A program made the position numbers and the translations under genes. Shown here piece after piece: positions 2-57,604 of a stretch of 57,604 nucleotides of DNA. How positions within the stretch are numbered: the first letter of the stretch is position 1; the number at the start of each line of letters is the position of its first letter. Source of the stretch: Bacteroidales bacterium (lineage in GTDB: Bacteria > Bacteroidota > Bacteroidia > Bacteroidales > WCHB1-69). A model generated the notes under the pieces. That model was not told where the DNA came from and searched no databases. It saw only the letters and a list, made by a program, of their open reading frames with translations. The stretch lies in the NCBI GenBank assembly GCA_017527945.1, contig JAFXPL010000129.1:1-57604 (forward strand), in the 5' to 3' direction.

Positions 2-2590
2 CAGGTCTATTGCGACCCCTACAAGCTGGAGAGCTATAACCTCACCATCGAGGCCATCGCCCAGATCCTGGGCGCGGAAAACCGCAACGTCTCCCTCGGT
101 GTGATGGACGTGGGCTCCAAGACCTACTCCATGCGCGTGGATGGCGAGTTTGACAGCGCCGACGAGATGGAGAGCGTGGTGGTCGGCAGCTACAACAACA
201 AGAACGTCTATCTGAAGGATGTAGCCGTGGTGCGCGACACCCTGCAGGAACGTATGCAGGAGTCTTACACCGACGGACAGCGCGGCGCCATGGTCATCAT
301 CCAGAAGCAGACCGGTGCCAACACGGTGCAAATCTGTAAGAAAGTGCTGGCCCAGCTGCCTGACATCCGGAACTCCCTGCCCGCCGACGTGGAACTCAAC
401 GTCCTGGTCGATAACTCCGACAACATCACCAACACCATCGACAGCTTGGAGGAAACCATCCTCATCATCCTGCTGTTGGTTGTCGTGGTCGTGCTCTTCT
501 TCCTTGGAAGATGGCGTGCCACCGTGATCATTGCCGTGGTGGTGCCCGTCTCCTTGATTGCGGCCTTTATCTATCTGTTAGCAACAGGTAATACGTTGAA
601 TATCATCTCATTGTCGTCCATATCCATCGCCATCGGACTGGTGGTCGATGACTCCATTGTGGTGTTGGAGAACATCACCACGCATATCGAGCGGGGTTCG
701 AAGCCCAAGGCGGCGGCCGTGTTCGCCACCAGTGAGGTGTCGCTCTCCATCGTGGCCTCCACCCTCGTGATTATCGCCGTGTTCCTGCCGCTGACCTTCC
801 TGACCGGCATGGCGGGCGTGCTCTTCAAACAGTTGGGCTGGATTGTCACCATCGTGATTGCGGTCTCCCTTTTGGCCTCCATGACCTTGACCCCGATGCT
901 GAGCTCCCTGTTGTTGAAGAAGAACCCGAAGAAGAGCAAGTGGTTCGCGAAGGTCTATGCTCCCATCGAGCGCTTCTTGGCCTGGTTGGATGAGGCCTAT
1001 GCCAAGATTTTGCGCTGGTGTGTGAACCACCGCAAAACCGTGGTGGGCATGGCGGTCGTCATCTTCCTCGCCAGCCTTTCCCTGCTGTTGGTCATCCCCA
1101 CCGAGTTCTTCCCGACCCAGGACAACGCCCGTCTGAGCGCCACCGTGAAGCTGCCGCAGGGTACTCGCGTGGAGACTATCAAGGCGCTGGGCGACCAGTT
1201 GGTGAAGGAGATGAAGGCGAAATACCCCGATGAAATCAAGACCATCAACTATTCTGTGGGTATGCCTGACGAGGACAACACCTTCAGCCTCATGCGCGAC
1301 AACGGCACGCATCTGCTCTCCTTCAACATCCGTTTGGTGAAGAAGACCGAGCGTAAGAAGTTCATCACGGAGATCGCCGACGGCATCCGTGATGTCATGA
1401 AGCAGCATATCGAGATTAACTCCTACACCGTCTCCACAGGCCAGGGCAGCATGGGCGGCCAATCGACCGTCGATATTGAGCTGTACTGCTACGACTTCAA
1501 CACCACCGACCAGTTTGCCGCCGACCTCGCCGCCCGTATGCGGCAGGTGGAGGGCTGCTCCGAGGTGCTGATCAGCCGTGACGAATACACGCCCGAGTTG
1601 GAGGTCGTCTTCGACCGGCAGAAGCTGGCCGAGAACGGTCTGAACTCCACCACGGGTGCCAGCTACGTGCGCAACCGCTTCAACGGCTACACGGCATCGC
1701 AGTTCCGCGAAGACGGCGACGAGTACAATATCCGCGTGCGCTACGCTCCCGAGTTCCGTAACGACATCCACGCCATCGAGAACATCCTGATGTACAACAG
1801 TCGCGGCCAAGGCATCCGCGTGGGTGATGTGGCGCAGGTGCAGGAAACCTTCACCCCGCCGACTATCGTCCGCAAGGACCGCGAGCGTATGGTCAAGGTC
1901 TCTTGCGTGGTGGCCAAGGGCACCGCGTTGAGCGAACTGGTGGCTTCCGCCCAGCACGAGCTCGACCAGATGGATGTCCCCGCCACGCTCGACTACAAGA
2001 TCGGCGGTACGTGGGAGGACCAGCAGGACGCTTTCGGCGACATGTTCATGCTGATGGCGCTGATTATCATCCTGGTCTATGTGGTGATGGCCGCGCAGTT
2101 CGAGTCGTTCAGCTACCCGTTCGTCATCATGGGCTCCATTCTGTTCGCTCTCACCGGCGTGCTGATCGGTTTGGCCGTCACGCGCACCGCTTTGGGCATC
2201 ATGGCCTTGATCGGCTTGATGATGTTGATTGGTATCGTGGTGAAGAACGGTATCGTGCTCATCGACTACACGAGTTTGTGCGTCGAGCGCGGCATGAGCA
2301 TCAAGGATGCCGTGGTCGCCGGCGGTCGCTCCCGTCTGCGCCCGATCTTGATGACTACCTTGACCACCGTGCTCGGCATGATCCCGTTGGCCGTTGATAA
2401 GGGCGAGGGTGCCGAGATGTGGAACTCCATGGGTATGGTGGTGGCCTGGGGCCTCACCTTCTCCACCTTGGTGACCCTGATCCTCATCCCGATCGTCTTC
2501 AGCAAGTTCGCCGAATGGAACGCCCGGGGCGATGCCCGTCGCCGCGCCCGCCGCGCCCGCAACAAAGCCCTTGGCGTCAACGAAGTATAA
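2..2590 (+). CDS. RND-family efflux transporter permease, 5' end outside the window
   Basis: This is an AcrB/HAE1-type inner-membrane pump that exports drugs or other hydrophobic compounds using the proton gradient. The reading frame is open from base 2, so the protein continues upstream of the window. 862 residues are visible, and roughly 170-190 N-terminal residues are missing compared with a normal length of about 1040. A hydrophobic run at about residues 155-300 contains GLVVDDSIVVLENI, the paired aspartates of the proton relay in TM4. A second membrane block lies near the C-terminus (about 680-830), and porter/docking sequence lies between. The end is very basic (RRRARRARNK). The periplasmic adaptor and outer-membrane channel genes are presumably upstream, outside the window. 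A heptamer repeat array starts at the base after the stop codon. The family is certain; the substrate is unknown. Confidence 0.95.
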   Translation, partial: QVYCDPYKLESYNLTIEAIAQILGAENRNVSLGVMDVGSKTYSMRVDGEFDSADEMESVVVGSYNNKNVYLKDVAVVRDTLQERMQESYTDGQRGAMVIIQKQTGANTVQICKKVLAQLPDIRNSLPADVELNVLVDNSDNITNTIDSLEETILIILLLVVVVVLFFLGRWRATVIIAVVVPVSLIAAFIYLLATGNTLNIISLSSISIAIGLVVDDSIVVLENITTHIERGSKPKAAAVFATSEVSLSIVASTLVIIAVFLPLTFLTGMAGVLFKQLGWIVTIVIAVSLLASMTLTPMLSSLLLKKNPKKSKWFAKVYAPIERFLAWLDEAYAKILRWCVNHRKTVVGMAVVIFLASLSLLLVIPTEFFPTQDNARLSATVKLPQGTRVETIKALGDQLVKEMKAKYPDEIKTINYSVGMPDEDNTFSLMRDNGTHLLSFNIRLVKKTERKKFITEIADGIRDVMKQHIEINSYTVSTGQGSMGGQSTVDIELYCYDFNTTDQFAADLAARMRQVEGCSEVLISRDEYTPELEVVFDRQKLAENGLNSTTGASYVRNRFNGYTASQFREDGDEYNIRVRYAPEFRNDIHAIENILMYNSRGQGIRVGDVAQVQETFTPPTIVRKDRERMVKVSCVVAKGTALSELVASAQHELDQMDVPATLDYKIGGTWEDQQDAFGDMFMLMALIIILVYVVMAAQFESFSYPFVIMGSILFALTGVLIGLAVTRTALGIMALIGLMMLIGIVVKNGIVLIDYTSLCVERGMSIKDAVVAGGRSRLRPILMTTLTTVLGMIPLAVDKGEGAEMWNSMGMVVAWGLTFSTLVTLILIPIVFSKFAEWNARGDARRRARRARNKALGVNEV

Positions 2591-2699
2591 TTGGCTGTTG
2601 GCTGTTGGCTGTTGGCTATTGGCTATTAGCTGTTGGCTATTAGCTATTGGCTATTAGCTATTGGCTATTAGCTATTAGCTATTAGCTACTGGCTATTAG
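2591..2699. repeat. Degenerate heptamer tandem array (TTRGCTR), about 15 units
   Basis: Consecutive 7-nt units alternate between TTGGCTG, TTGGCTA, TTAGCTG and TTAGCTA. The array begins directly after the TAA stop of the efflux gene. The same unit family recurs at 3171-3202, 25354-25392, 40617-40698 and 41803-41838. Confidence 0.95.
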
Positions 2700-20631: not shown

Positions 20632-20716
20632 GGTTAGACGGTTAGTTGGTTAGTTGGTTAGTTAGTCGGGTTAACCCATTAACCTATTAATCTATTAACC
20701 CGTTAATCCATTAACC
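20632..20716. repeat. Tandem array GGTTAGTT/TTAACCYA over the purL stop codon
   Basis: Seven- to eight-base units read GGTTAGTT then TTAACCCA/TTAACCTA. On the minus strand the array begins GGTTAATGG, and the TAA stop of purL is part of the first unit. Confidence 0.9.
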
Positions 20717-23700
20717 TTTAAAATACGCTACTGCATTGGCAAAGATGTCCTGCTCTTTGTTGCCGTCCACGTTTTTGTAGAGGTAGCGGCCCTTTCGCTC
20801 GCTGTGTCCCATCTTGCCAAGGATGAGACCGTTGTCAGAGACGATGCCTTCGATGGCGTAGAAGGATCCGTTGGGGTTGTCTTCGGGAGTCATGCTCACA
20901 TTTCCGTTCTCGTCACAGTATTGGAAAGCGACCTGTCCGTTCTCGAAGAGCTGTTTGGCTAACGGTTCCGACACCACAAACTTGCCTTCGCCATGACTGA
21001 CGGCAATCTCGTGGACATCGCCTTCGCGGAAAGAACTGAGCCACGGGGAGCTGGTTTTGCCCACGCGGGTGCGCACGAGGCGCGAGATGTGGCGGTTGAT
21101 GTTGTTGCGGTAGAGCGTCGGGGATTCGGGCGTAACTTCACCCAGCTTGCCGAACGGGAGTAGTCCTGACTTGACCAATGCCTGGAAACCGTTGCAGATG
21201 CCGAGTACCAGGCACTTGCGGGCTAACAAATCCTCCACGGCGGCTTTCACCTTCGGGTGATTGAGCACGTTGGCGATGAATTTGCCGCTGCCGTCGGGCT
21301 CGTCGCCCAAGCTGAAGCCGCCGGAGAGGGCGAGAATCTGCGACTCGCGAATGGCCGCCGCTAACTCGTCGATGGAATGCTCAATGGCCGCTTCGTCTAA
21401 GTTCTTGAATACCAGGATGCGGGTTTCCGCCCCGGCATCTTCAAAGGCCCTGGCTGTGTCGTAGTCGCAGTTGGTGCCGGGGAAGACGGGCAGAATCACT
21501 TTGGGCTTCGACACCTTGTCAACAGGGCTCGTGCAGGCGTGCCCGGGCTTGCTTTCAAACTCCGAACCTGTCGAGGAGGTCTCATTGGGTGCCGTTTGCG
21601 GGTAAAGTTTGCCGTAATAGCCGCTCCATGCCGCTAATAAAGCCGCTTTGTCAAGTTTTTCGCCGTTGATGACGAACTCATCCGACACACGTCCGATCAA
21701 CGTGCAGTACGGCGGTCTGTCCAAACGTTCCGTGGCTTCGATGACAAAGCTGCCATAGCCGTATGCGAACAAATCTTCATCCGTCTGGACATCAAAGCCC
21801 AGGTCGTTGCCGAAACTCATCTTGGCCAACGCTTCCGCGATGCCGCCGAACTGTAGCGCAAAAGCGGAAACAATCGTCTTGTCCATGATGTTGTTACGCA
21901 CATAGAACAAGGTTCTCTCGGTTTCGTCAATATCAGGCATTCCATCCTGGAATTGATTTTTAACCAAATAGATATAGTTTCCTTTTTGCTTGAATTCGGG
22001 CGAGATGATGTGGAAGGCATCCTCAGTGGTGATGGCGAAGGAGACGATGGTGGGCGGCACGTGCATGTCTTTGAAGGTGCCGCTCATGGAGTCCTTGCCT
22101 CCCAGCGAGGCGAGTCCGAAGGCTTTTTGCATCCAGAAGGCGCCGAGCAGTGCGGAAAGCGGTTTACCCCAGCGCGTCTCATCCTTGCCTAATTTCTCGA
22201 AGTATTCTTGGAAGGTGAAGCGAATCTTGTGGTGGTTGCCGCCAGCCGCCACGACTTTCGACATGGCTTCCAGCACAGCCAGCACGCCGGCATGGAAGGG
22301 TGACTGCGTGGCGATGAACGGGTTGTAGCCGAACGCCATGATGGAGGTGGTGTCGGTGTGGCCGTGCAGCACCGGCAGCTTCTGTGCACTAACTTGTGTC
22401 TCCGTCAGCTGGTTCTTGCCGCCGAACGGCATCAGCACCGTGGAGGCGCCGATGGTGGCATCAAACATCTCGATAAGTCCCTTCTGGGAGGCCACGTTCG
22501 GGTTGGTGAGACAGCTGATCCATTTTTCCTGCATGGTGTCGCCATGGATGTCGATGGATTTGATGAGTTCACCTTGTACTGGGGCAATCCGCGCCTTTAC
22601 CTGCTGGCGCACGCCGTTGGTGTTGATGAAGTCGCGGCTGAGATCGACGATGGTCTTGCCGCGCCAGGTCATGGTGAGGCGGTTGTTGTCGGTCACTTTG
22701 GCGATGATGTTGGCTTCGAGGTTTTCTTCGCGGCAGTATTGGAAGAAGGTCTCCACGTCCTCGGGGGCCACCACTACGCTCATGCGTTCCTGTGACTCGC
22801 TGATGGCGATTTCGGTGCCGTTCAGGCCGTTGTATTTCGTGCGCACGGTGTCAAGGTCGATGACGAGACCGTCGGCCAGTTCGCCGATGGCCACGCTGAC
22901 GCCGCCTGCACCGAAGTCGTTGGACTTCTTGATGAGCTTCGTCACTTCGGGACGGCGGAACAGGTGCTGGATTTTGCGTTCTTCGGGGGCGTTGCCTTTC
23001 TGCACTTCGGCGGAACAGGTGTCGAGCGACTTCTCGTTGTGCTCTTTCGACGAGCCGGTGGCACCGCCGATGCCGTCTCTGCCGGTGCGACCGCCGAACA
23101 TGATGATGATGTCGCCGGGCTGCGGGCGTTCGCGGCGCACTTGGCACTCGGGAACGGCACCCACTACAGCCCCGATTTCTAAGCGTTTCGCTTGATAGTC
23201 AGGGTGATAAATCTCGCGGACGTGCGTTGTGGCCAATCCGATTTGGTTACCGTAGGAGGAGTAGCCGGCGGCGGCGGTCTTGGAAATCACCGATTGGGGA
23301 AGTTTGCCGGGCAGCGTGGCGGAGATGGGGGCGTTGATGTCGCCCGCGCCCGTCACGCGCAGGGCCTGATAGACGTAGCTACGGCCGCTCAGGGGGTCGC
23401 GGATGGCGCCGCCCACGCAGGTGGCCGCTCCGCCGAACGGCTCAATCTCTGTCGGATGGTTGTGCGTCTCGTTCTTGTACATCAGCAGCCAGTCCTCCTC
23501 GTGGTTGTCCACATCCACCTTCACGCGGATGCTGCAGGCGTTGTTCTCCTCGGAGATCTCCTTGTCTCTAAGATGCCCCCGTTTGTATTCGTATTTTCCG
23601 TTGATGGAAGCCAAATCCATCAGCGTGACAGGCCGTTGCGTGTCTTTTCCGTATAGTTCATCGCGCACGGCGAGATATTCACGCAACGCATTCTCGATTT

Positions 23701-24430
23701 GTTCCTTATAAATATTGTCACCTTCCGTCTGAATGTCCGTGATGGCCGTTTCGAAGGTGGTGTGGCGGCAATGGTCGCTCCAATAGGTGTCCAACAGTTT
23801 GATTTCCGTGTCAGACGGGTCGCGCTTTTCGTCGTTGGCGAAATATTGCTGGATGAATTTCAGATCCTCCAACGACATGGCCAGTCCCATCTTGCCGTGG
23901 AAATCGCGCAACTGCTCCTCAGTCCACTCGCGGAAACCGTTGTAAATCGGAACTTCTTGGATTTCAGGGTTCTCTGTCAGTTCGAGTTTGGACATGTCCT
24001 TCTCACGGGCCTCTACCTCGTTGATGCAGTATTTCTTCACCTTCAGCCATTGGTCGTCGGTAAGGTCGCCCTCGATGACATAGAGGTTGGCACTTTTGAT
24101 GACGGCCTCCGTCTTGGGGTCGAGGAGTTTGAGGCACTGCAGGGCGCTGTCGGCGCGCTGGTCGAACTGTCCGGGCAGGAACTCCACGGCGAAATACTTC
24201 AGCCCGTCAAGTGGAAATTCGTGACATACATTGTCGGTCACGGGTTCGGAGAAAACTACGGCTTCGGCCTTCTGGAGCAGTTCCTCGCCGATGTTGAATA
24301 TGTCATAGACCTTCAAGTGCCGGAGATTCCGGATGCTGAGGTTAAAGTTCTGATTCAGTGTGTTTTTCAAACTCTCGGCTTCTACTTGGAAGCCAGTTTT
24401 CTTTTCTACAAAAATACGGGCGTCACGCAT
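20711..24430 (-). CDS. purL: Phosphoribosylformylglycinamidine synthase
   Basis: The single-chain (large) PurL of 1239 residues converts formylglycinamide ribonucleotide to the amidine in purine synthesis, using glutamine and ATP. The N-terminal PurS-like and linker regions lead into the synthetase halves (DTYWSDHCRHTTF near residue 215, ETHNHPTEIEPFGGAAT near 325). The C-terminal glutaminase has nucleophile C1079 in GICNGFQALVKSG. Between synthetase and glutaminase (about 943-970) lies a poorly conserved-looking linker encoded by an imperfect palindrome. A -7 box lies at 24456-24463. The stop codon lies in a TTAACC-type repeat array. Confidence 0.97.
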   Translation of the reverse strand: MRDARIFVEKKTGFQVEAESLKNTLNQNFNLSIRNLRHLKVYDIFNIGEELLQKAEAVVFSEPVTDNVCHEFPLDGLKYFAVEFLPGQFDQRADSALQCLKLLDPKTEAVIKSANLYVIEGDLTDDQWLKVKKYCINEVEAREKDMSKLELTENPEIQEVPIYNGFREWTEEQLRDFHGKMGLAMSLEDLKFIQQYFANDEKRDPSDTEIKLLDTYWSDHCRHTTFETAITDIQTEGDNIYKEQIENALREYLAVRDELYGKDTQRPVTLMDLASINGKYEYKRGHLRDKEISEENNACSIRVKVDVDNHEEDWLLMYKNETHNHPTEIEPFGGAATCVGGAIRDPLSGRSYVYQALRVTGAGDINAPISATLPGKLPQSVISKTAAAGYSSYGNQIGLATTHVREIYHPDYQAKRLEIGAVVGAVPECQVRRERPQPGDIIIMFGGRTGRDGIGGATGSSKEHNEKSLDTCSAEVQKGNAPEERKIQHLFRRPEVTKLIKKSNDFGAGGVSVAIGELADGLVIDLDTVRTKYNGLNGTEIAISESQERMSVVVAPEDVETFFQYCREENLEANIIAKVTDNNRLTMTWRGKTIVDLSRDFINTNGVRQQVKARIAPVQGELIKSIDIHGDTMQEKWISCLTNPNVASQKGLIEMFDATIGASTVLMPFGGKNQLTETQVSAQKLPVLHGHTDTTSIMAFGYNPFIATQSPFHAGVLAVLEAMSKVVAAGGNHHKIRFTFQEYFEKLGKDETRWGKPLSALLGAFWMQKAFGLASLGGKDSMSGTFKDMHVPPTIVSFAITTEDAFHIISPEFKQKGNYIYLVKNQFQDGMPDIDETERTLFYVRNNIMDKTIVSAFALQFGGIAEALAKMSFGNDLGFDVQTDEDLFAYGYGSFVIEATERLDRPPYCTLIGRVSDEFVINGEKLDKAALLAAWSGYYGKLYPQTAPNETSSTGSEFESKPGHACTSPVDKVSKPKVILPVFPGTNCDYDTARAFEDAGAETRILVFKNLDEAAIEHSIDELAAAIRESQILALSGGFSLGDEPDGSGKFIANVLNHPKVKAAVEDLLARKCLVLGICNGFQALVKSGLLPFGKLGEVTPESPTLYRNNINRHISRLVRTRVGKTSSPWLSSFREGDVHEIAVSHGEGKFVVSEPLAKQLFENGQVAFQYCDENGNVSMTPEDNPNGSFYAIEGIVSDNGLILGKMGHSERKGRYLYKNVDGNKEQDIFANAVAYFKG

Positions 24431-27718: not shown

Positions 27719-27745
27719 AATTCTGAATTCTGAATTCTGAATTAT
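27719..27745. repeat. Heptamer array GAATTCT after rnfA
   Basis: Three to four copies of a 7-nt unit begin three bases after the rnfA stop codon. Confidence 0.85.
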
Positions 27746-30669: not shown

Positions 30670-30688
30670 AAATTTTTTTCGATACGGT

Positions 30689-30730
30689 GTGAATGGTGAA
30701 TTGTGATTTGTGAATGGTGTTTTGTGAATG
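30689..30730. repeat. Heptamer array GTGAATG
   Basis: Six consecutive 7-nt units (GTGAATG, GTGAATT, GTGATTT, GTGAATG, GTGTTTT, GTGAATG) lie upstream of the rnfD promoter. Confidence 0.9.
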
Positions 30731-40616: not shown

Positions 40617-40698
40617 GGCTGTTAGCTGTTGGCTGTTGGCTGTTGGCTGTTAGCTGTTAGCTGTTGGCTGTTAGCTGTTGGCTGTTGGCTGTTGGCTG
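40617..40698. repeat. Heptamer array CTGTTRG, about 11 units
   Basis: Units CTGTTAG and CTGTTGG alternate, in the same family as 2591-2699. The array runs directly into the cassette leader. Confidence 0.95.
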
Positions 40699-40897
40699 TT
40701 TCCGCGTGTTTTCGCAATTCAAAAACGTCGTCCCGAAAGCGTAAAAATTGCTCGTGTTTAGCGAAAAATGAAAATAGTGTTAACAATAATTTCTTAAAAT
40801 AAACATTTTTTAAATTGTAAAGTATTGAATTTCAGCGGATAAAATGTTTTTAGTTTTTTGAGGTGATCAAACGTTTTTGTTGTATCTTTGCGGCGTG
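40699..40897 (+). promoter_or_regulatory. Duplicated ~200-bp leader, copy A
   Basis: The first ~105 bases differ from copy B (41837-42035) at only about three positions; the remainder is roughly three-quarters identical. It ends with the promoter box TATCTTTG (40883-40890) and GCGGCGT. It includes TTTTCGC and GCGAAAA about 50 bases apart in inverted orientation. Confidence 0.85.
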
Positions 40898-40920
40898 AAA
40901 TTACTTTAAACAAAAAAACT

Positions 40921-41748
40921 ATGAAAAGAGAAGTATCGCAAAGGGATTTGGATATGCCGCAATTAAGGCAGCTGGTGTTGGAGAACTCCGAAAGAATTGA
41001 CAAGAACGAGCAGCTAATCAGTCTGATACGTATGGAAAATAACGGACAGAGCAAGAAACTCAGCGACAACGACCGGTGGGTGAAGAACTTCCAGGGGATG
41101 TTTGAGGAATCCATGCGTCGGTCAGCCGAACGGATGGACAGGATCGAGAAGCTTGCGGAAATTTCGAGGCTTGAGCAAGAGAAGCGAAGCCGTGAGCTGG
41201 ATGCGCGGTTCGCAGAGACGGATCGACAGTTCAAGGAGACGGACCGACGGCTTTTGGAACTAAAGGAAGAGACGGACAGACAACTGAAGGAAACCTCCAT
41301 GGAGGTGAAGCGGCTCTCCCGTCAGCTCAATGGCACAACGGGGCATATTGTGGAGGGTCTGGTCAGCTCCTCGACGGAGAAGATTTTTGAGAAGGTTGGA
41401 CTGGTGCTGCACAACAGCGGCAAGAATCTGAAAAGAAGCCTTCCGTCCGAGCATATAGCCATGGAAGTGGACGTCCTGCTCAGCAATGAGGAGATTGCAA
41501 TCCCTATCGAGGTCAAGACCAACTGCACGAAGGACGACGTGCGGTGGTTTCTGCGTCAGATGGGCCGTTTTCGCCGGCTTTTCCCCGAATACGACGGCAA
41601 GGAGGTCGTTGCTGCTATCGCCGCCGTCAACTATGAGAAGGGGGTTGCGGAACTTGCCCACAAGGAAAGGCTCCTCGTCATCCGTGTCAACAGCGACGAC
41701 ATCTTCTCCATCGACCCCTTCAAGATGGAAGACTTGCTGAGGTTCTGA
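40921..41748 (+). CDS. Coiled-coil protein with PD-(D/E)XK nuclease-like domain (DUF3782-type)
   Basis: This 275-residue protein has a long coiled coil at about residues 10-145 (repeated EETDRQLKETS, AETDRQFKETDRR). A compact C-terminal domain at about 150-275 carries GHIVEGLVSSS, MEVDVLLSNEE and IPIEVKTN, the E...D...ExK core of PD-(D/E)XK nucleases. The arrangement matches the DUF3782 group, whose cellular role is not established. The ATG at 40921 is chosen because a longer frame would begin inside the -7 box. It is the first of two tandem genes preceded by the same ~200-bp leader, which suggests common regulation or cassette-like spread. Confidence 0.85.
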   Translation: MKREVSQRDLDMPQLRQLVLENSERIDKNEQLISLIRMENNGQSKKLSDNDRWVKNFQGMFEESMRRSAERMDRIEKLAEISRLEQEKRSRELDARFAETDRQFKETDRRLLELKEETDRQLKETSMEVKRLSRQLNGTTGHIVEGLVSSSTEKIFEKVGLVLHNSGKNLKRSLPSEHIAMEVDVLLSNEEIAIPIEVKTNCTKDDVRWFLRQMGRFRRLFPEYDGKEVVAAIAAVNYEKGVAELAHKERLLVIRVNSDDIFSIDPFKMEDLLRF

Positions 41749-41802
41749 GAATTTGCGATTTGTGATTTCGGGAGAAGGGGAAAGGGAGTAAGATTGTGTT
41801 CG

Positions 41803-41838
41803 TGGCTGTTGGCTGTTAGCTGTTAGCTGTTGGCTGTT
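41803..41838. repeat. Heptamer array CTGTTRG, five units
   Basis: This is the same unit family as 40617-40698, again ending exactly where the leader begins (CTGTTTCCGCG in both). Confidence 0.9.
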
Positions 41839-42035
41839 TCCGCGTGTTTTCGCAATTCAAAAACGTCGTCCCGAAAGCGTAAAAAATGCTCATGTTTAGC
41901 GAAAAATGAAAATAGTATTAACAATAATTTCTTAAAATAAACATTCGTAAAACTATAAAATATTGATTTTCAGTGTTGAAATTATTTTTAGTCTTTTGAT
42001 GCAATCAAACATTTTTGTTGTATCTTTGCGGCGTA
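41837..42035 (+). promoter_or_regulatory. Duplicated ~200-bp leader, copy B
   Basis: It matches copy A, with the same junction to the heptamer array and the same terminal promoter box (TATCTTTG at 42021-42028). Confidence 0.85.
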
Positions 42036-42061
42036 AAAAATATCGTTAAAACAAGGAAATC

Positions 42062-42460
42062 ATGGAAAAGAAAGATCCCATAGAAGAGGCCCGGCGGTAT
42101 GTGGTCAACGCCGAGGAGGTCATCGAGAAGGCCAACTACGACCCGGAGCTGAATCGGTATTCGGATGGCAAGTACGTGAAAATGGCAGGAAACACGCTGT
42201 GGAACGGCTGCTTGATTGTTCTTGATGCCTTGTTCGGCCTGTCCAAGCGTAAGGGCCGTCCTGACATCGGAAAGTACAAAGATGCGGCCCGGAAGCGCGA
42301 CCGTAGGCTGTTGGCGTCCATTGTAGATGGCTATGACACCATGCACCTGTCCATGGGCTATGACGGGAATAAAAGCAAAAAAGTCTGCGATTCAGGCTTC
42401 GAGTATGCGAATGCCATCATTGACCACTGCGCCAGGCTGATGCCATCTGGAGTCAATTGA
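42062..42460 (+). CDS. DUF5618-family small protein
   Basis: This 132-residue soluble, probably all-helical protein contains EVIEKANYDPELNRYSD and KYVKMAGNTLWNGCLIVLD. These fit the DUF5618 family, common in Bacteroidales, often in several copies per genome, and of unknown function. It is the second gene preceded by the ~200-bp leader. A broken relative lies at 57181-57301, where EIIKKAEYDPGL and KYVRLTGNTL are still readable. The start ATG follows the promoter box by 34 bases with a short GGAA before it. Confidence 0.85.
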   Translation: MEKKDPIEEARRYVVNAEEVIEKANYDPELNRYSDGKYVKMAGNTLWNGCLIVLDALFGLSKRKGRPDIGKYKDAARKRDRRLLASIVDGYDTMHLSMGYDGNKSKKVCDSGFEYANAIIDHCARLMPSGVN

Positions 42461-44920: not shown

Positions 44921-45126
44921 GGGTTAGTGGGTTTAGGTTATAGGTTAATAGGTTATAGGTTAATAGGTTATAGGTTATAGGTTAATAGGTTATAGGTTAA
45001 TAGGTTATAGGTTAATAGGTTATAGGTTAATAGGTTATAGGTTAATAGGTTATAGGTTAATAGTTATTAGTTATTGGTTATTAGTTATTGGTTATTAGTT
45101 ATTGGTTATTGGTTATTGGTTGGTTA
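44921..45126. repeat. 205-base tandem array GGTTATA/GGTTAATA then TTATTRG
   Basis: This is the longest array in the window. Alternating 7- and 8-nt units (GGTTATA, GGTTAATA) repeat about eight times, then TTATTRG heptamers follow. It fills the whole space between sbcD and metH, and the sbcD stop is its first unit on the minus strand. Confidence 0.95.
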
Positions 45127-48030: not shown

Positions 48031-48086
48031 GTGATTAGTGATTAGTGATTAGTGATTAGTGATTAGTGATTAGTGATTAGTGATTT
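48031..48086. repeat. Perfect 7-bp repeat GTGATTA x7 plus GTGATTT, touching a start codon
   Basis: Eight consecutive units run from two bases after the C69 stop to the base before the thioesterase ATG. This is the least degenerate array in the window. Confidence 0.97.
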
Positions 48087-57180: not shown

Positions 57181-57301
57181 GTTGAAAGGCTCGTTTCTTA
57201 TGTTTCCAATTCAAATCGGAAATCATTAAAAAGGCCGAATACGATCCTGGTTTGCAGATTTATACGGATGATAAGTATGTCAGGTTGACTGGAAACACCC
57301 T
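57181..57301 (+). pseudogene. DUF5618 gene remnant, frameshifted and truncated
   Basis: From 57219 the frame reads EIIKKAEYDPGLQIYTDDKY then VRLTGNTL, aligning with EVIEKANYDPELNRYSDGKY and VKMAGNTL of the intact protein at 42062. Upstream, a different frame reads VERLVSYVSNS, comparable with IEEARRYVVNA, so one frameshift separates the two parts. The match stops abruptly at about 57301, where the Rpn remnant on the other strand begins. About 60% of the gene is missing, including the C-terminus. Confidence 0.8.
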
Positions 57302-57403
57302 GCCGACGAGGCTGTTGAGGAGGTGGATGGTGATGTCCTTGTTGCGCTCGGTGCCGAGCAGCCGCTTGAAGCCGAAGTCGGAGAGGGGGACATGTAATTC
57401 CAC
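57260..57403 (-). pseudogene. Rpn-type (PD-(D/E)XK transposase-like) nuclease N-terminal remnant
   Basis: Reading leftward from a GTG at 57403 gives VELHVPLSDFGFKRLLGTER, then NKDITIHLLNSLVG. This is the conserved front of the Rpn/PDDEXK_2 recombination-promoting nuclease family (usual form: PLTDFGFKRLFGTE.NKDLLI.FLN). After LVGRVF the frame enters the complement of the DUF5618 remnant and stops at 57260. Only about 35 of the usual ~300 residues remain. A -7 box at 57408-57415 is intact. Confidence 0.8.
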
Positions 57404-57407
57404 CTTG

Positions 57408-57415
57408 CAAAGATA
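57408..57415 (-). promoter_or_regulatory. -7 promoter box upstream of the Rpn remnant
   Basis: TATCTTTG on the minus strand is followed by GCAAGGTG, so it resembles the box that ends the leaders at 40.9 and 42.0 kb. The upstream ~60 bases do not match those leaders. Confidence 0.6.
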
Positions 57416-57604
57416 CAACATAAAACCGCTGTAGTCAAGGGGTTGGTAGGATTTTTTTAATTGACCGAGAATCAGTTGATTGCAATAATAAAATTAACAA
57501 ATCGGCTTTGAATAGTTAAATTGTTGGGCTCGATTTCGCATGGAAACGGGGCGTATGGCCGCAGGCATGCCGTCGCCGTCATTTCTCGGAACAAGCCAGC
57601 GATC

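What the first reader, a model, noticed from the sequence alone, without database searches (positions are those of the whole stretch)
40617..42460. Two tandem cassettes: heptamer array + same ~200-bp leader + different small gene
Array (CTGTTRG), leader and gene occur twice in a row with identical junctions, but the genes differ: a coiled-coil PD-(D/E)XK protein and a DUF5618 protein. The first ~105 bases of the leader are nearly identical and lie upstream of the -7 box, so they are not a 5' UTR. They may be a shared operator, a small-RNA gene, or the recognition end of a mobile cassette. Both proteins belong to poorly understood, multi-copy Bacteroidales families, and a DUF5618 remnant meets an Rpn nuclease remnant at the right edge. 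Together these point to an undescribed accessory system.
Basis: partly seen in the sequence, partly recalled or inferred. Interest (0 to 1): 0.75.

Follow-up and report, generated by a model that had tools for sequence, protein, structure and literature searches.

The report
Shared promoter of scattered nuclease genes
In a group of uncultured Bacteroidales bacteria, the same stretch of about 150 bases of control DNA sits in front of many unrelated small genes, a good part of them resembling nucleases or other nucleic-acid proteins, which suggests that one unknown switch controls them together.

Summary
In detail: two array-leader-gene units in tandem with different genes, a coiled-coil PD-(D/E)XK-like protein (P1) and a DUF5618 protein. 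The leader is not just a local duplicate. A sequence-only model of its ~150 bp next to the gene matches 85 of 104 genomes of one Bacteroidales family, 17 of them with E<1e-8. Of 80 copies outside the training set, 72 lie directly upstream of DUF5618 (35), P1-like (20) or Rpn/PF12784 (17) genes. A broader model adds ORF6N, YhcG/DUF1016, a comEC-ruvA row and others; there the three families make up 57 of 125. The window holds a third, decayed copy before an Rpn fragment.

The conserved part starts ~28 nt before a dyad (TTAACAATTAATTGTTAA or TTAACTATTC-N6-GAATAGTTAA), which sits at a nearly fixed distance from a Bacteroidetes-type promoter. No shared 3' end was found. I read it as the promoter-operator module of an undescribed regulon, not a small RNA or recombination end. 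The heptamer arrays are not part of it. The near-identity of the first ~117 bp of the two window leaders is a separate, recent local copying. Regulator, signal and gene functions are unknown.

The parts
40617..40700 (.). heptamer array 1 (not part of the conserved module)
   Evidence: TRF
40701..40750 (+). 5' part of leader 1; with 40751-40807 nearly identical to copy 2, recent local copying
40760..40890 (+). promoter-operator module 1: AGCGAAA block 40760, dyad-like TTAACAATAATTTCTTAA 40780-40797, TTGAATTTCA 40825-40834, -33 TTG 40858, -7 TATCTTTG 40883-40890
40921..41748 (+). P1: predicted long helix plus C-terminal PD-(D/E)XK-like domain (E182-x-D184 ... E197-x-K199)
41803..41838 (.). heptamer array 2 (not part of the conserved module)
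   Evidence: TRF
41898..42028 (+). promoter-operator module 2: AGCGAAA block 41898, dyad-like TTAACAATAATTTCTTAA 41918-41935, TTGATTTTCA 41963-41972, -33 TTG 41996, -7 TATCTTTG 42021-42028
42062..42460 (+). DUF5618 protein (PF18498), helical bundle resembling 3mfn and HEPN domains
57396..57521 (-). third, decayed module: long dyad 57519-57494, TTGAC 57438, -7 TATCTTTG 57415-57408. R1 16.4 bits, E 0.0024; R2 44.1 bits, but this stretch was one of the 89 sequences R2 was built from
57302..57388 (-). truncated Rpn (PF12784-like) fragment behind module 3
   Evidence: tblastn E 5e-9
57219..57302 (+). inverted DUF5618 fragment
   Evidence: tblastn E 4e-10

Best explanation
The leader is a cis-regulatory module of about 150 bp: a GCGAAA block, an inverted-repeat operator centred ~88-97 bp upstream of the -7 box, a TTGATTTTCA block, and a Bacteroidetes-type promoter (-33 TTG/TTGAC, -7 TATCTTTG). 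Dozens of transcription units per genome in one Bacteroidales family carry it. Shown: the module, its copies, its position and the genes behind it. Inferred: a dimeric DNA-binding protein binds the dyad and switches these units together. Targets are largely small accessory genes (DUF5618, P1, Rpn, ORF6N, YhcG/DUF1016, DUF559, GIY-YIG, PBECR1), plus some conserved units such as comEC-ruvA. I expect joint expression in response to a stress or DNA-related signal; neither regulator nor signal was identified. In the window two such units stand in tandem and the 5' part of one leader was recently copied onto the other.
For: Leaders before a P1 paralog and before a DUF5618 gene in another genome (G893) align with both window leaders, nearly gapless over 120 columns; the six pairs score 5.2-17.7 SD above single-base shuffles. 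Model without coding sequence: 85 of 104 family genomes match at E<=0.01, 17 with best E<1e-8. Of 80 independent hits 72 precede DUF5618, P1 or Rpn genes, 24 of 24 at >=40 bits. Conservation starts ~28 nt before the dyad (138 copies). Dyad centre 92-97 bp from the -7 box in 72 of 85 short and 88-91 bp in 50 of 50 long copies. Half-sites conserved without covariation beyond column composition in 11 of 12 tested pairs, as expected for a protein site rather than a hairpin. Specificity: 0 hits at E<=0.01 in 216 kb of 52 loci outside the family; in 178.5 kb inside it 22 strong hits, then a gap from E 4e-9 to 1.6e-4, and 6 of 6 strict dyads there lie in modules. No shared element behind the genes.
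Against: No regulator was found and no expression data exist. The broader model is less specific for the three families: 57 of 125 (123 distinct places), with 68 other genes, some in rows of housekeeping genes. Only 29 of 56 DUF5618 hits have a listed module; of 13 others in ten fetched stretches, none has a directly upstream match better than E 0.006. In G893 only 1 of 5 P1 paralogs examined has it. 19 of 104 family genomes show none and many others only weak matches. The dyad lies far upstream for a simple repressor.
Confidence: 0.72

Rival explanations
1. The module is a general strong-promoter architecture of this family (AT-rich upstream region, perhaps a nucleoid-protein site). Accessory genes merely use it often, and there is no dedicated regulon.
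For: 68-75 matches per genome at E<=0.05 in six genomes. The module also precedes rows of conserved genes: an Exo_endo_phos gene followed by genes I read as rpsP, rimM and purA, comEC-ruvA, DUF2851 and radical SAM genes.
Against: A dyad of defined form at a nearly fixed place. Other promoters of the window do not match: next best E 1e-3. Strong bias of the best hits to three accessory families.
Confidence: 0.15
2. The leader is the recognition end of a mobile cassette (leader plus gene) that is moved by a recombinase or nuclease.
For: Accessory gene content; tandem units more often than by chance (21 of 150 against a mean of 3.7); leader and protein similarity correlate within families (Mantel r 0.16, 0.38, 0.43); decayed copies; in one pair of genomes homology starts near the module's 5' edge (L141/L140).
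Against: No shared 3' end (73 flanks). The module ends in a promoter close to the start codon. It precedes conserved gene rows too. Other pairs have homology reaching beyond the 5' edge. No empty-site comparison was possible.
Confidence: 0.09
3. Only a local tandem duplication of array and leader in front of two unrelated genes.
For: The first ~117 bp are 97.4% identical and the identity drops sharply after that, so recent local copying did happen.
Against: It does not explain homologous leaders before the same families in other genomes.
Confidence: 0.02

Closest known systems
Bacteroidetes LexA-like SOS regulons (CTAA-N5-TTAG, GGA-N5-TCC), PMC8565304 (passages read)
   Same: Dyad operator in front of many scattered units
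   Different: Other motif; those regulators are reported absent in Bacteroidales; here the dyad lies ~90 bp upstream of the -7 box
Conserved regulatory sequence before diverse archaeal virus anti-defence genes, PMC11065993 (abstract and outline seen)
   Same: One promoter region marks many unrelated small accessory genes and can be used to find more
   Different: Archaeal viruses and early viral genes; here bacterial chromosomes
Rpn proteins (PF12784/TIGR01784 and relatives), PMC10327210 (abstract, introduction and one section read)
   Same: One of the three main target families; multi-copy, horizontally moving, variable repeats
   Different: That text describes genes-within-genes control; a shared upstream module with DUF5618 and P1 was not in the parts read
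Integron gene cassettes (recalled, from no call)
   Same: Interchangeable small genes next to a common element
   Different: Each unit here has its own promoter; the element is 5' and one-ended; copies are dispersed

Membership tests
Transcriptional regulon with a shared operator | Same dyad at a constant place relative to the promoter before many units | tested here: met
Transcriptional regulon with a shared operator | A regulator that binds the site, and co-expression | not testable with these tools
   no binding or expression data
Bacteroidetes SOS regulon (CTAA-N5-TTAG) | CTAA-N5-TTAG operator | tested here: not met
   dyads listed have TTAAC...GTTAA halves (by inspection); motif from PMC8565304
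Mobile cassette with defined ends | Conserved element at both ends of the unit | tested here: not met
   no enriched word, dyad in 1 of 73 3' flanks
Mobile cassette with defined ends | Empty sites with common junctions | not tested
DUF5618 (PF18498) | Score above Pfam's cut-off | tested here: met
   96.7 bits against 33
HEPN (for DUF5618) | HEPN helical-bundle fold | tested here: inconclusive
HEPN (for DUF5618) | R-X4-6-H motif (recalled) | tested here: not met
   in 2 of 41 aligned proteins, all close relatives
PD-(D/E)XK nuclease (for P1) | Core fold | tested here: met
PD-(D/E)XK nuclease (for P1) | D ... (E/D)-x-K residues | tested here: met
   E-x-D...E-x-K in 38 of 38 aligned homologs
PD-(D/E)XK nuclease (for P1) | Nuclease activity | not testable with these tools
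   no assay

The most novel reading that the evidence does not exclude
The dyad is the operator of an undescribed DNA-damage or DNA-uptake regulator of Bacteroidales, an order in which the known Bacteroidetes LexA-like SOS regulators are reported absent. It would coordinate comEC-ruvA with a large, fast-changing set of nuclease, HEPN-like and toxin-antitoxin-like genes: a single master switch for an accessory arsenal acting on incoming or damaged DNA.
Probability: 0.15. Interest if true: 0.85.

Novelty: new variant of a known kind. Interest (0 to 1): 0.62.

Why it matters
Small multi-copy families such as DUF5618, Rpn and coiled-coil PD-(D/E)XK proteins are usually treated as unrelated orphan genes. 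If one promoter module ties them together, their function can be approached as one system: find the regulator and the signal, and use the module as a search key for further members (several targets listed here have no Pfam match). It also bears on what controls DNA stress and uptake genes in Bacteroidales. My literature searches turned up no description of such a module; they cover open-licence PMC papers only, and most hits were seen as listings.

Tried and rejected
No genome is held for the window. Exact leader 18- and 19-mers: 0 in viral contigs; 7 matches in genome contigs, in unrelated organisms, about what chance gives. Plasmids by blastn: none. Module patterns in viral contigs: none. 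PurL and UvrC were poor markers for placing the window; RnfA led to a matching order and P1 to G893 (28 of 393 genomes with a P1 relative). P1 was not found in two small orders (6 genomes, 108 genomes). P1 and P2 relatives were not found in viral contigs.

Small RNA or hairpin: no Rfam hit; no covariation of dyad halves except one of 12 pairs at p 0.0145. Concerted evolution of leaders inside a genome: cross-family identity 0.670 in the same genome (n=193) and 0.671 between genomes (n=2757), permutation p 0.605, so the local copying in the window is not a general pattern. PADLOC and NCBIfam: no family for P1 or P2. A prediction of a known LexA box was not borne out.

Rows dropped: of 89 R1 matches, four weak ones (L133 twice, L145, L162) were left out. 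Of the rows with E up to 1.2e-6, one (G1074:C10) was not fetched and one (L150, G1117) gave no match on the repeat search; five weaker G893 hits were added. Of 150 listed R2 rows (435 matches in all), 108 were new and 80 of these were fetched; they hold 83 hits, 81 distinct. R2 was built from all 89 rows of A3, the third window copy and four weak rows included, so its scores for those sequences are partly by construction. The count of 72 of 80 comes from leaders most like the four training leaders and is higher than in the broader set.

Full report
What is there. The two units are real: heptamer arrays at 40617-40700 and 41803-41838, leaders 84.8% identical over 256 columns with the same array junction, and two unrelated genes, P1 (40921-41748) and a DUF5618 gene (42062-42460). 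Leader identity has a clear break at 40807/41945: 97.4% before and 74.1% after, 2dlnL 29.6. So two things are superposed: an old homology of the whole promoter region, and a recent local copying that includes the 5' part of the leader.

Is the leader found elsewhere? Exact leader words gave only chance hits in genome contigs and nothing in viral contigs; blastn against plasmids found nothing. The way in was through genes. RnfA pointed to a matching order, and P1 pointed to G893, a species with several P1 paralogs. There, a leader homologous to the window's stands before a P1 paralog (L063) and before a DUF5618 gene with 74% identity (L065). All six pairs of the four leaders score 5.2 to 17.7 standard deviations above single-base shuffles, and the alignment is nearly gapless over 120 columns.

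What follows each copy. A sequence-only model of the four leaders, without coding sequence (R1), was run over the 104 held genomes of G893's family: 85 have a match at E<=0.01, up to 20 per genome; 17 have a best E below 1e-8, and many others only weak matches. I fetched 80 regions and classified 80 hits by translated search: 35 DUF5618 (two of them decayed copies), 20 P1-like, 17 Rpn/PF12784 and 8 others. At >=40 bits it is 24 of 24. Among the eight are GIY-YIG, PBECR1 and RhuM proteins. A second model from 89 leaders (R2) found 68-75 matches per genome at E<=0.05 in six genomes. Of the 125 hits classified there (123 distinct places), 25 are DUF5618, 11 P1, 21 Rpn and 68 other genes. The others include ORF6N (a cluster of 19 with relatives), YhcG/DUF1016, 23S_rRNA_IVP, DUF559, Exo_endo_phos_3, DUF2851, radical SAM, an IS1595-type gene, and a Competence-domain gene followed by ruvA. 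The first sample is biased towards leaders like the training set and the wider set is more mixed; both are given.

Reverse direction. Of 56 DUF5618 hits in the six genomes (two of them pieces of one gene), 29 have a listed module 20-83 nt upstream; the list was cut at 150 of 435 matches. Ten stretches with 13 of the 27 others were fetched: directly upstream of these genes no match is better than E 0.006, though five have weak matches (E 0.006-0.05) at the right place. In G893 only one of five P1 paralogs examined has the module, and two others share a different leader between them. The association is strong but not obligatory.

Anatomy. Over 138 copies, conservation begins about 28 nt before the dyad and is at background level before about -45. 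The dyad has a short form (18 bp, TTAACAATTAATTGTTAA, 85 of 168 copies) and a long form (26 bp, TTAACTATTC-N6-GAATAGTTAA, 50 of 168). Its centre is 92-97 bp from the -7 box in 72 of 85 short and 88-91 bp in 50 of 50 long copies; TTGAC stands in the -33 window of 123 of 167. Half-sites do not covary beyond column composition, except one of 12 tested pairs at p 0.0145. No element is shared behind the genes (73 flanks). In the window R2 finds three strong hits, the two leaders and 57521-57396 on the minus strand; the next best is at E 1e-3. All three were among R2's building sequences; for the third, R1, which had not seen it, gives only 16.4 bits, E 0.0024, but it has the long dyad, TTGAC and TATCTTTG in place and an Rpn fragment behind it. 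In 216 kb from 52 loci outside the family R2 finds nothing at E<=0.01. In 178.5 kb inside the family, 22 strong hits are separated from the rest by a gap from E 4e-9 to 1.6e-4, and six of six strict dyads lie in modules. Modules cluster: 21 of 150 have a same-strand neighbour within 3 kb against a mean of 3.7 (maximum 14 of 500 trials) for random placement, the pattern seen in the window.

Leader and gene. Within families, leader similarity and protein similarity correlate (Mantel r 0.16, p 0.044 for DUF5618; 0.38 for P1 and 0.43 for Rpn, none of 500 shuffles as high), while leaders of different families are no more alike within a genome than between genomes.

Interpretation. The simplest account is a promoter with an operator, shared by a regulon. 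A mobile cassette end is not supported: no second end was found and the module also precedes conserved genes. A general promoter type remains possible in part. Regulator and signal are unknown. Known Bacteroidetes SOS motifs differ, and their regulators are reported absent in Bacteroidales (PMC8565304, passages). That leaves room for the bolder reading given in the section on the most novel reading, for which comEC-ruvA is the only direct hint; among the 125 classified hits I saw no recA or repair polymerase gene.

Limits. Lists were cut at 150 rows. Some product names rest on my reading of translations (rpsP, rimM, purA; HicB- and HigB-like proteins). The literature searches cover open-licence PMC papers only.

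Noticed in passing
window 2590-2699, 27719-27743, 30688-30729, 44922-45121, 48031-48085: Further period-7 (or 14/15) arrays with other unit sequences, so heptamer arrays are a general feature of this genome.
   Followed up: no
P1 family, P0001-P0120: Length differs in steps that fit coiled-coil repeats ((length-275) mod 11 is 0 in 48 of 120), e.g. repeated ETDRQLK in P0051; Rpn tails are also reported to vary in repeat number.
   Followed up: partly
P0002/P0221 and P0007/P0227: A P1 98-99% like the window's and a DUF5618 that differs mainly in its middle list the same longest contig length (39400; 86301), hinting at mosaic alleles at one locus in other strains. Adjacency was not shown.
   Followed up: no
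window 20711-24430 (-): The PurL-type protein has full-length 49-50% relatives in only 5 of 295 sampled class genomes; most others match at about 30%.
   Followed up: no
L264:7986-11111: Three module-gene units in a row (GIY-YIG, PBECR1, Rpn) in G893, beside a gene I read as a metallo-beta-lactamase-fold protein.
   Followed up: partly
L064 and L066: Two other P1 paralogs of G893 share a different upstream region with each other, so a second leader type may exist.
   Followed up: no
L111 and L112: Two nearly identical loci differ in the stretch behind the DUF5618 gene, with the change starting in a heptamer array.
   Followed up: partly
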